Shown: positions 26,475 to 31,994 of the stretch, one piece after another
How the letters are laid out: the number at the start of each line of letters is the position of its first letter
Numbering within the stretch: position 1 is the stretch's first letter
Assembly (NCBI GenBank): GCA_021323945.1
Contig: JAJPKA010000008.1
Coordinates: 1 to 64,000 of the forward strand
Length of the DNA stretch: 64,000 bases
From: Pseudomonadota bacterium
GTDB lineage: Bacteria; Desulfobacterota; Binatia; Binatales; Binataceae
Direction of reading: 5' to 3'
The notes under the pieces: generated by a model
Seen by the model: the letters and a program-made list of their open reading frames with translations, nothing else
Database searches by the model: none
What the model was told of the DNA's origin: nothing
Translations under genes and position numbers: made by a program

Positions 26475-28820
<2,346 letters not shown>

Positions 28821-28838
28821 CTAGCTGAGGTCTCGTTC

Positions 28839-29360
28839 TCAGCCAACTCCATCGGGTTCATCCGAGGTCGGGGCTGAGCGCGTTCGCTTTTCGGCCATCT
28901 GGCAACGTCCGCAAAGCGCATCGATTTCCAGCGAACAGCGCAGCAACGCGAATTCCCCAAGATTAGGTCTACCTTCCAGCAGCTTGTCTATCTCCGGGAT
29001 CTCGATGTCGTGCACGCGTCGGCAGCGGACGCAAAGGACGTGGTGATGAGGCTCGACGTTGCCGTCATAACGGGCGACGTCATGCAGCAAGGTGACTTTG
29101 CGCGCCTCCCCGACCTCACAAAATTGCTCCAAAATTCTGTGCACGGTGGCCAGTGACACGTGCGGATGATCGCGTCGTACTATTGCACATACCTCATCTG
29201 TACTCGGATGATTTTCGGAGGCGAGCAGAGCCTTTATAACCGCCAGCCTCTGCGGCGTGACAGCAATCCCCCGCTTGCGGCATCGCGCGACAAACTCATC
29301 GAGCCGTCGAACTGAGTATGTCTCGCGCCACCGTCGGTCGACCAAGCGAAGCTCTCGCAT
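28839..29360 (-). CDS. perR: Fur-family peroxide-type repressor (PerR-like)
   Basis: A 173-residue Fur-superfamily metalloregulator. A winged-helix domain (GIAVTPQRLAVIKALLASENHPSTDEVCAIV, then HPHVSLATVHRILEQF) is followed by a dimerisation domain. ARYDGNVEPHHHVLCVRC holds the His/Asp metal site that PerR proteins use for peroxide sensing, and two structural-zinc pairs are visible: CVRC and CGRC. The ATG at 29360 is favoured by CAGGA upstream; a TTG at 29375 would add five residues. It lies directly before katG on the same strand, so it probably represses katG and itself. A PerR rather than FurA identity is likely, not certain. Confidence 0.87.
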   Translation of the reverse strand: MRELRLVDRRWRETYSVRRLDEFVARCRKRGIAVTPQRLAVIKALLASENHPSTDEVCAIVRRDHPHVSLATVHRILEQFCEVGEARKVTLLHDVARYDGNVEPHHHVLCVRCRRVHDIEIPEIDKLLEGRPNLGEFALLRCSLEIDALCGRCQMAEKRTRSAPTSDEPDGVG

Positions 29361-29561
29361 ATTTGATCCTGGCAAGCCATCAAGGCCGAAAGACGACGAA
29401 CGACCAACGCCGAAGGGAGGAAGATGAGGGCCGACAGGATGGGTAATCTGCAGGCTCAGCCGATACCTGCTCTCACCTGCAACTAATTACTAAATCCCTT
29501 AGCACTTCAGACAGAATTGTCAACCAGTTGCGAATTGTTACTGACAAATACGCGCAAAGCC

Positions 29562-29579
29562 GTCACGTCGCTCCGTGAC
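29562..29579. promoter_or_regulatory. possible operator, GTCACG-N6-CGTGAC
   Basis: A perfect inverted repeat of two 6-bp arms centred 63 bases before the higBA-like ATG and in the gap divergent from perR. Position and symmetry suit a dimeric HTH repressor such as the HigA part of the neighbouring fusion. PerR cannot be excluded, but the site does not resemble the AT-rich PerR box. Function is inferred. Confidence 0.35.
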
Positions 29580-29632
29580 ATCTAAATGATAAAGGCGTAT
29601 GAGGAACCCATCGAGACTCTTTGGGGAACCGT

Positions 29633-30223
29633 ATGATCAAAACGTTCCGATCTCGCGACGCCGAGCTTTTGGCCGCGCGGAAGTCAGTTCCGATCTTCCA
29701 TGCGGTTGAAATCGCTCAAGCTATGGAGCAGGTAACGCGGAGAAAACTGGCTCAGTTGAACGCTGCCGAGGAACTGGGCGACCTCGCCGTGCCTTCGTCA
29801 AACTGCCTTGAATCGACATCCTTCGCGGGCGATCAGGGGCACCGGATCCGCGTGAGTTATTGCTGGGAGCTCCGTTTCCTATGGCGACGTGATGCTTACG
29901 ACGTCGATTTGGTCCGTCGCAGCCGTAACCCAGTGCTGGTTCGCGGCAAAAGGGAAAACGGCTTACTGCCGGCGATTTATCCCGGTGAGATCCTGCAGGA
30001 TTTCATGAGACCGTCTTTGATTGGTGTGACTGAGCTGGCGTATGCCACGGGCTTACCGAAAGCTCAGCTCACAGCAGTCATTAGTGGACAGCTAGAGATC
30101 AGCGCTGACATCGCTTTCAGACTAGGCAGATTCTTTCACACCACGCCGAGCTTCTGGCTAAACTTGCAGCGCGATTACGAACAACAGCTTGCGGAAAGCG
30201 CCAGGCTCGCTGCGATCGGCTGA
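29633..30223 (+). CDS. HigB-HigA toxin-antitoxin fusion protein
   Basis: One uninterrupted 196-residue frame joins two proteins that are normally separate. Residues 1-96 match HigB (RelE-fold ribosome-dependent mRNase): MIKTFRSRDAELLAARK, ALNAAEELGDL-like linker and CWELRFLWRRDAYDVDLVRR. Residues 114-196 match HigA (Xre-type HTH antitoxin): YPGEILQDFMRPSLIGVTELA, a GLPKAQLTAVISGQLEIS turn and AFRLGRFFHTTPSFWLNLQRDYE. HigB normally ends shortly after the DAYDV strand in DYH; here VRRSRNPVLV leads on to HigA. There is no stop, ATG or obvious ribosome-binding site at the junction; a GTG at residue 101 is the only alternative. The ATG at 29633 has GGGGAA upstream. Confidence 0.82.
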   Translation: MIKTFRSRDAELLAARKSVPIFHAVEIAQAMEQVTRRKLAQLNAAEELGDLAVPSSNCLESTSFAGDQGHRIRVSYCWELRFLWRRDAYDVDLVRRSRNPVLVRGKRENGLLPAIYPGEILQDFMRPSLIGVTELAYATGLPKAQLTAVISGQLEISADIAFRLGRFFHTTPSFWLNLQRDYEQQLAESARLAAIG

Positions 30224-30338: not shown

Positions 30339-31109
30339 TTAACGGCCTGTCCAACGGGGCTGGCGCTTCTCCAGAAAGGCGCGAATGCCTTCCTTGGCAT
30401 CCTGACTGTTTCGGACGACCCTTGCCATTGCCAGCAGATCATCGTGCCAGGCATTATTCGAATTGCTCAAAGCTCGGCGCATGCTCTGTTTCATCACCCG
30501 CAGACTCAGGGGCGCGTTTGCTGAGATGCGTTCCGCCCATGAATTTACCGTCGCATCGAGGTCTGCGTTCGGCACGACTTCGTGAACCATGCCCATGCGC
30601 AGCGCGCGTTCCGCATTAACCGGCTCAGCTGTATAGAGAATCTGCGCGGTGTTGGCAGCTCCGATAATCTCGATGAGTTTGCGGATAAAGTCGTACGGTA
30701 CCAGTAGGCCAACCCGGGCGACGGTCATACCAATCCGAAGATCTTGGGCAGCTATCCGCAGATCGCAGTGAAGTGCCAGCTCGCAGCCGCCCGCCAGCGC
30801 AGCTCCCTGCACTGCGGCGATGGTCGGGACAGGAAGATGAGCAAGGCGATGAAACACTCGCTCGATGTTCACGGCACCTTGTCCGCCTTCCAGCCTGTCG
30901 GCCTCGGCTAGGTCCAGACCGGAACAGAAGCTTGAACCCGCACCACGAACTATCACCGCGCGAATTTCCTGGTCGCCTTCGATTGAGGTGATGGCGTCGT
31001 CCAGTGCCTGCATAAGTGCGACGTTAAGGGCGTTGCGCTTTTCGGCACGATTCAGCGTTAAAGTGACGAAGTGGTTATGGCGCTCAACCTTCAGCACTGT
31101 CTCCGGCAT
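30339..31109 (-). CDS. enoyl-CoA hydratase/isomerase family protein
   Basis: A 256-residue crotonase. GSSFCSGLDLAEAD and QGAALAGGCELALHCDLRIA are the CoA/oxyanion segments. The first hydratase glutamate is kept (GGCELAL), but the second position holds Val (MTVARVG), so the reaction may be isomerisation, decarboxylation or an incomplete hydration. The C-terminus ends FLEKRQPRWTGR, as in the next gene. It is a clear paralogue of 31233-31994 (matching N-terminus, NAEKRNALN block and NSQDAKEGIRAFLEKR tail) and is read downstream of it after 123 bases, pointing to a tandem duplication. Confidence 0.9.
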   Translation of the reverse strand: MPETVLKVERHNHFVTLTLNRAEKRNALNVALMQALDDAITSIEGDQEIRAVIVRGAGSSFCSGLDLAEADRLEGGQGAVNIERVFHRLAHLPVPTIAAVQGAALAGGCELALHCDLRIAAQDLRIGMTVARVGLLVPYDFIRKLIEIIGAANTAQILYTAEPVNAERALRMGMVHEVVPNADLDATVNSWAERISANAPLSLRVMKQSMRRALSNSNNAWHDDLLAMARVVRNSQDAKEGIRAFLEKRQPRWTGR

Positions 31110-31232
31110 TTCGGTTACTCCTGTGTTAAACCAAGGCTACGTGCGTGGCAGCTACGGATGTGACGCCGCAACTCCCGCTGTTCGGTTCAGAGCTTTCTGA
31201 TGTGGGTCAATTGATCGTCGGGAATTCCCGAC

Positions 31233-31994
31233 TTATTGTCCACGCCAGACGGGCTTGCGTTTTTCGAGAAACGCGCGCACCCCTTCCCGGGCATCCTGAC
31301 TGTTCCGCACCCGATTACCTAGCTCATCAAGGTCTGAATGTTCGACCTCGAAGGCCTTGCTCATCACCCGAGCAATCATCTGCTTCATCGCCCGCACCGA
31401 GAGCGGCGCATTCCCGGCAATTGTTTCTGCCCATTGGACCGCAGCTGCCGAAAGTGATTCGTCGGGGACGACCTTGTGAACCAAGCCCATTTCGCGCGCT
31501 CGGTTGGCTCCAACCGGTTCAGCCAAAAACATGATTTCCGCGGTATTGGCCGGGCCGACCGTTTCGACGAACTTGCGAAAGATCCAGTATGTTGGCAAGT
31601 AACCAATGCGCGCCGGAGTCATTCCCAGCCGTGCGCCTTCAGCGGCGATTCGCAGGTCACAGGTCAAAGCCAGTACTAGACCGCCAGTAAGCGCATCACC
31701 ATGAACCGCAGCGATGGTTGGTACCGGTAGCTTCTGCAGCCGCGCGATGATCTTTTCGAAACTCAGTCCGCCCGGGCCCATCTGTTCGATGTCGCGGAGA
31801 TCGAGGCCGGAGCAGAAACTTCGACCCTCGCCGCGAATCACCACAGCCCGAACGTCGGGGTCACGTTCGACCGATTCCAACATCTGGTCGAGCGCCGCTA
31901 TGACCGCGCCGTTTATTGCATTGCGCTTCTCAGGGCGGTTGAGCGAGAGGGTCACATAATTGTGATTACGTTCGATTTTAACTTCGTCTGCCAT
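31233..31994 (-). CDS. enoyl-CoA hydratase/isomerase family protein (paralogue)
   Basis: A 253-residue crotonase and sister of the gene just downstream. GRSFCSGLDLRDIEQMG and VHGDALTGGLVLALTCDLRIA hold the CoA-binding parts. Both hydratase glutamates are replaced: Val in GGLVLAL and Pro in MTPARIG, so it is unlikely to be a classical hydratase. C-terminal DAREGVRAFLEKRKPVWRG is shared with its paralogue. The catalytic difference between the copies suggests they diverged after duplication. The substrate is unknown. Confidence 0.88.
   Translation of the reverse strand: MADEVKIERNHNYVTLSLNRPEKRNAINGAVIAALDQMLESVERDPDVRAVVIRGEGRSFCSGLDLRDIEQMGPGGLSFEKIIARLQKLPVPTIAAVHGDALTGGLVLALTCDLRIAAEGARLGMTPARIGYLPTYWIFRKFVETVGPANTAEIMFLAEPVGANRAREMGLVHKVVPDESLSAAAVQWAETIAGNAPLSVRAMKQMIARVMSKAFEVEHSDLDELGNRVRNSQDAREGVRAFLEKRKPVWRGQ

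What the first reader, a model, noticed from the sequence alone, without database searches (positions are those of the whole stretch)
29633..30223. HigB toxin and HigA antitoxin joined in one frame
Two normally separate proteins are encoded by a single 196-residue ORF, with no stop, internal ATG or ribosome-binding site between. A toxin fused to its own antitoxin would be held inactive in cis, unless cleaved or internally re-initiated. It could be a self-regulating transcription factor, a protease-activated toxin, or a fossil from a lost stop codon. The HigB end (DYH) is replaced by linker.
Basis: partly seen in the sequence, partly recalled or inferred. Interest (0 to 1): 0.7.

Follow-up and report, generated by a model that had tools for sequence, protein, structure and literature searches.

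The report
Detoxified HigB–HigA gene fusion
A bacterial toxin gene and its antidote gene have merged into one open gene whose toxin half has lost its cutting residues, so the product is probably a harmless leftover or recycled protein, of a kind already catalogued elsewhere, rather than a leashed toxin.

Summary
The fusion is real. One open 196-codon frame encodes a HigB-like toxin domain followed by a HigA antitoxin domain. HigB–HigA fusions are already catalogued (Table 2 of PMC11980606), so the architecture is known.

The near-universal C-terminal Asp-Tyr-His is Arg-Arg-Ser, and an Arg present in all 61 aligned relatives is Glu. The closest relative in the class has the same seven-codon gap between the genes, so stop codon, ribosome-binding site and start codon were replaced in place. 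The usual upstream operator palindrome is missing, and the antitoxin half has lost an Arg whose counterpart is needed for DNA binding in P. aeruginosa HigA.

No orthologous fusion exists in the other 40 genomes of the family or 147 of the class. Four independent fusions turned up in class and phylum; three also have a wrecked toxin end. Against a simple fossil, the toxin half kept its hydrophobic core (17 of 25 conserved positions) while shedding polar ones (8 of 30 kept), beyond neutral simulations. Best reading: a detoxified higBA relic whose fold was kept, possibly for another binding role. Function is untested.

The parts
29633..30223 (+). fused higB-higA open reading frame, 196 aa
   Evidence: translation;-6 families and PDB relatives
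29623..29627 (+). GGGGA Shine-Dalgarno-like motif five bases before the ATG
   Evidence: read from the sequence
29633..29914 (+). HigB-like (RelE-fold) toxin domain, codons 1-94; keeps 23 of 52 conserved columns, catalytically degenerate
29915..29923 (+). codons 95-97 CGT CGC AGC (RRS) at the place of the DYH catalytic end
29924..29926 (+). codon 98 CGT (R) at the place of the ancestral higB stop codon
29936..29938 (+). codon 102 CTG at the place of the ancestral higA ATG; GTG of codon 101 just before; no Shine-Dalgarno upstream
29969..30220 (+). HigA-like antitoxin (HTH, XRE) domain, codons 113-196
30065..30067 (+). codon 145 (Q), normally Arg in the HTH (93% of relatives)
30092..30094 (+). 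codon 154 (L), counterpart of P. aeruginosa HigA Arg49, normally Arg (89%)
29568..29632 (+). 65 nt upstream of the ATG where relatives carry the operator palindrome; none recognisable here
29562..29579 (.). GTCACG-tcgctc-CGTGAC dyad, even spacing and further upstream than the family operator; probably chance

Best explanation
This is a detoxified higBA module fused in place. In an ancestor, higB and higA lay in the same frame a few codons apart, as in most relatives seen here. Substitutions replaced the catalytic DYH end, the higB stop, the higA ribosome-binding site and the higA ATG without changing the length of the spacer, so both halves are now read as one protein (shown by comparison). 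The toxin half should not cleave mRNA (inferred from loss of the active-site end and an invariant Arg). The two domains are predicted to fold as one compact unit (model only). The operon's own operator and the antitoxin's operator-contacting Arg are gone, so it is probably no longer a self-regulating toxin-antitoxin switch (inferred). The retained hydrophobic core of the toxin half suggests the fold was kept by selection after toxicity was lost. The likeliest role is therefore a domesticated binding protein, perhaps a DNA binder of new specificity, or a very recently abandoned one (inference; function not shown).
For: DYH is at 97-98% in 61 aligned relatives and is RRS here; the Arg of QWR is in all 61 and is Glu here. 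HigB half keeps 23 of 52 conserved columns (44%) against a mean of 85% in 95 relatives. GraT's active site is a cleft around His92, the H of that end (PMC6393540); solved HigB variants include delta-H92 and Y91A (5iwh, 5ixl). In the closest relative of the class, L036, the seven codons after the last shared core codon, then the start codon, line up one for one: GGC TAT CAT TAA GGA GGA TAT ATG against CGT CGC AGC CGT AAC CCA GTG CTG. That spacing of 7 codons is one of the two commonest (18 of 75), and 66 of 75 relatives have a Shine-Dalgarno-like motif there while this one does not. Operator dyad: 75% of 91 relatives against 18% of shuffles, absent here. HigA Arg49 counterpart lost. Hydrophobic 17/25 against polar 8/30 kept; neutral simulations reach this in 0.1%, natural relatives never. 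Three of four other fusions found also lost the toxin end. No other HigB-like toxin in the genome.
Against: No activity was measured. The hydrophobic-core test weakens to p 0.03 if residues 60-73 are realigned generously, and to 0.06 if the DYH columns are also left out. There are no orthologues, so selection after the fusion cannot be measured directly. The HigA half also diverged strongly and has the longest branch of its tree. AlphaFold hardly senses destabilising changes and the model leans on intact relatives.
Confidence: 0.6

Rival explanations
1. A neutral fossil: the module was abandoned, fused by loss of the stop, and is drifting without function; it is open only by luck or because the decay is recent.
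For: Longest branch in the concatenated tree (1.58 against a median of 0.29); catalytic site, operator and higA start signals all gone; frameshifted higB genes next to intact higA occur in relatives (L012, L021); the genome's only other clear higA, on C8, is frameshifted and has no toxin; no orthologue in the rest of the family.
Against: Open frame after heavy change: 18% of neutral runs of the toxin half and 41% of the antitoxin half stay free of stops at the same loss, before counting frameshifts. Conserved hydrophobic positions of the toxin half are kept far more than polar ones. Codon-position GC is as in neighbouring genes.
Confidence: 0.25
2. A working autorepressor: a permanent HigB-HigA complex that binds its own promoter.
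For: The HTH fold is intact; HigB does not stop HigA of P. vulgaris from binding the operator (PMC6393540).
Against: No family-type operator dyad upstream; the counterpart of HigA Arg49, essential for DNA binding in P. aeruginosa (PMC6987408), is Leu, and the 93% Arg of the recognition helix is Gln.
Confidence: 0.07
3. A latent toxin held inactive in cis and released by proteolysis of the linker or balanced by internal initiation.
For: The chain is predicted to fold with both domains in place; a GTG lies at codon 101; fused toxin-antitoxin proteins such as EzeT exist (PMC4803016).
Against: Catalytic DYH and the invariant Arg are replaced; no Shine-Dalgarno before codons 101-102. The only internal AGGGA (29951-29955) precedes a CTG by ten bases.
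Confidence: 0.04
4. An assembly or sequencing error that hides a stop between two ordinary genes.
For: The genome is a 22-contig draft; single-base errors can fuse genes, and two of the other fusions (L014, L253) look like one frameshift.
Against: No frame near the junction carries DYH; stop, Shine-Dalgarno and start are all replaced by substitutions with the ancestral spacing kept, which needs many independent errors.
Confidence: 0.03

Closest known systems
HigB-HigA-like fusions (PF_HigB-like mono-gene modules), Table 2 of mBio 2025 (PMC11980606): 17 prokaryotic and 3 eukaryotic entries
   Same: N-terminal PF05015-type HigB domain fused to a C-terminal HigA domain in one gene
   Different: Those authors take the abundance of fusions to mean that some are functional. 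Here the catalytic end and the higA start signals are lost. Their sequence tables (supplements) could not be read, so overlap with their list is unknown.
Two-gene higBA modules of the GraTA / P. aeruginosa HigBA type
   Same: Gene order, domain order, same-frame layout with a gap of 7-8 codons in the commonest cases, folds
   Different: No stop, Shine-Dalgarno or ATG between the halves; no DYH; no operator dyad; the operator-contacting Arg is lost
Fusion in genome G071 (L056)
   Same: One open frame HigB-HigA, same class
   Different: Single-base stop loss (TGG where a stop stands in relatives) with DYH, Shine-Dalgarno and ATG intact
Fusion in genome G159 (L252)
   Same: One open frame; DYH changed to DLP in place; degenerate toxin half
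   Different: HigA Shine-Dalgarno and ATG kept; different HigB subfamily
EzeT, a toxin with its antitoxin domain in one chain (PMC4803016)
   Same: Toxin and antitoxin in a single polypeptide
   Different: Unrelated zeta-toxin family; its toxin domain is active when the antitoxin part is removed

Membership tests
HigA family antitoxin (TIGR02607) | score above the curated cut-off | tested here: met
   62 bits against 47.7
HigA family antitoxin (TIGR02607) | operator-contacting residues of the HTH (P. aeruginosa Thr40/Asp43/Arg49) | tested here: not met
   Arg49 counterpart is Leu154, Thr40 counterpart is Gln145
HigB-like toxin (PF05015) | score above the curated cut-off | tested here: not met
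   21.4 bits against 27; 22.7 in the genome search
HigB-like toxin (PF05015) | RelE-type fold | tested here: met
   model matches HigB chains 6f8s_B, 4w4g at TM 0.83
HigB-like toxin (PF05015) | catalytic C-terminal DYH and the conserved Arg | tested here: not met
   RRS and Glu79
HigB-like toxin (PF05015) | ribosome-dependent mRNA cleavage | not testable with these tools
   needs expression
Type II higBA toxin-antitoxin module | two separately translated products | tested here: not met
   one frame; no Shine-Dalgarno or ATG between the halves
Type II higBA toxin-antitoxin module | operator dyad in front of the toxin gene | tested here: not met
   best odd-gap dyad 5 of 7 pairs, as in shuffles
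Fused HigB-HigA-like mono-gene modules (PMC11980606) | HigB-like domain fused N-terminally to HigA domain in one gene | tested here: met

The most novel reading that the evidence does not exclude
The HigB fold was stripped of its RNase site and kept as a structural partner fused to HigA, making a domesticated binding protein or regulator with a new target; such detoxified fusions may be the common fate of higBA modules that fuse.
Probability: 0.25. Interest if true: 0.45.

Novelty: new member of a known kind. Interest (0 to 1): 0.3.

Why it matters
It is a warning against reading fused toxin-antitoxin genes as leashed toxins: in four of the five fusions met here the toxin's catalytic end is broken, and in this one the signals for a separate antitoxin are gone too. 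It also shows how easily same-frame higBA pairs can fuse by losing one stop codon.

Tried and rejected
A scan of genome contigs with the fusion itself found no relative. Phages and plasmids hold only two-gene relatives or lone HigA under 60% identity among the listed hits. PADLOC gave nothing. The dyad at 29562-29579 was considered as an operator and set aside: its even spacing and distance do not match the family. A first per-domain conservation run was discarded because the HigB ends were cut out wrongly; one search replaces it. The key HigB mechanism paper (PMC5027501) is not held; the PDB titles of HigB mutants and PMC6393540 were used. A pair of compensating small indels around residues 61-69 was suspected from other-frame readings but could not be proved.

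Full report
What is there. The frame 29633-30223 is open for 196 codons, with a GGGGA motif five bases before the ATG. Residues 115-187 match the HigA antitoxin family well above its cut-off. Residues 26-92 match the HigB-like toxin family below its cut-off but match the solved toxin GraT (6f8s_B). With 61 relatives as alignment, nearly all two-gene pairs read through their stop, AlphaFold gives pLDDT 93.7 and pTM 0.90, and the two halves match solved HigA and HigB chains. It is the only PF05015 match in its genome, scoring below the cut-off.

Where it comes from. Most two-gene relatives met here have higB and higA in the same frame with one stop between: 76 of 96 non-redundant loci, a share raised by the spanning query. 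The gap from the last HigB core residue to the HigA start is most often 7 or 8 codons (18 and 22 of 75). In the closest relative in the class, L036 (42% identity), it is 7 codons, as here. L036 reads GTC GGC TAT CAT TAA GGA GGA TAT ATG GCT CGC; this gene reads GTC CGT CGC AGC CGT AAC CCA GTG CTG GTT CGC. The catalytic end, the stop, the Shine-Dalgarno and the ATG were thus all replaced in place, without a net change of length. What looks like a linker is the old spacer plus four extra codons (AGG GAA AAC GGC) in the HigA N-terminus. A Shine-Dalgarno-like motif precedes higA in 66 of 75 relatives and is absent here.

State of the toxin half. It keeps 23 of 52 conserved columns (44%; other loci mean 85%, sd 10). 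The C-terminal DYH, at 97-98% per residue in the 61 aligned relatives, is RRS; the Arg of the QWR motif, in all 61, is Glu. The active site of GraT is a cleft around His92 (PMC6393540), and solved HigB variants include delta-H92 and Y91A. Loss of RNase activity is therefore very likely, though inferred.

State of the antitoxin half and promoter. It keeps 57% of conserved columns (others 80%). The counterpart of P. aeruginosa HigA Arg49, shown essential for DNA binding (PMC6987408), is Leu154; the 93% Arg in the recognition helix is Gln145. In 75% of 91 relatives an odd-gap dyad of at least 6 of 7 pairs lies within 65 nt of the toxin start (18% of shuffles); here the best has 5. Autoregulation of the usual kind is unlikely.

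Fossil or kept? The gene sits on the longest branch of the concatenated tree (1.58 against a median of 0.29). Yet the frame is open, its codon-position GC is like its neighbours', and in the toxin half conserved hydrophobic positions were kept (17 of 25) while conserved polar ones were lost (8 of 30 kept). Neutral simulations brought to the same loss reach this contrast (0.41) in 0.1% of runs, and the largest among natural relatives is 0.19. Realigning residues 60-73 generously leaves p 0.03, and leaving out DYH as well leaves p 0.06. So a long, purely neutral drift is disfavoured but not excluded.

Spread. One other genome of the genus, 40 others of the family, 147 others of the class and 394 others sampled from the phylum hold no orthologous fusion. 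The katG-fur pair next to it is conserved in family members; in the nine fur loci read there was no fusion within the flank held, about 1.5 kb or less. Four unrelated fusions were found: L056 (TGG at the stop position, DYH kept), L014 and L253 (frameshift in the toxin end) and L252 (DYH to DLP, stop lost in place). Three of the four lost the toxin end in frame; all four keep the HigA ATG. This gene alone lost both.

What is known. Table 2 of PMC11980606 lists 17 prokaryotic and 3 eukaryotic HigB-HigA-like fusions and 12 PF_HigB ones. The architecture is therefore known, and this is a further, catalytically degenerate member. The host is an uncultured bacterium; the nearest named NuoN relatives are metagenome-assembled Proteobacteria and Deltaproteobacteria at 66 and 63% identity.

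What is shown and what is inferred. Shown: one frame, two domains, in-place loss of stop, start signals and catalytic residues, missing dyad, no orthologues in the sets searched. Inferred: no RNase activity, no autoregulation, fold kept by selection. Not known: whether the protein is made and what it binds.

Noticed in passing
genome contig C8:53569-53804 (locus L251): A second higA of another subfamily, split by a frameshift and without a higB beside it: another decayed toxin-antitoxin remnant in the same genome.
   Followed up: partly
L252 (G159:C78:17697-18251): Another single-frame HigB-HigA with DYH changed to DLP and a degenerate toxin half, in a different HigB subfamily; parallel detoxification.
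   Followed up: partly
L056 (G071:C31:18152-18721): HigB-HigA fusion with TGG at the stop position and DYH, Shine-Dalgarno and internal ATG intact: the best natural candidate for an active fused toxin with a separately made antitoxin.
   Followed up: partly
L012 and L021: higB genes frameshifted next to an intact higA in the same family of bacteria.
   Followed up: no
window 26475-29375: katG catalase-peroxidase with an adjacent Fur-family regulator, conserved as a pair in several genomes of the family.
   Followed up: partly
window 30339-31994: Two tandem enoyl-CoA hydratase/isomerase genes beside the nuo cluster.
   Followed up: no
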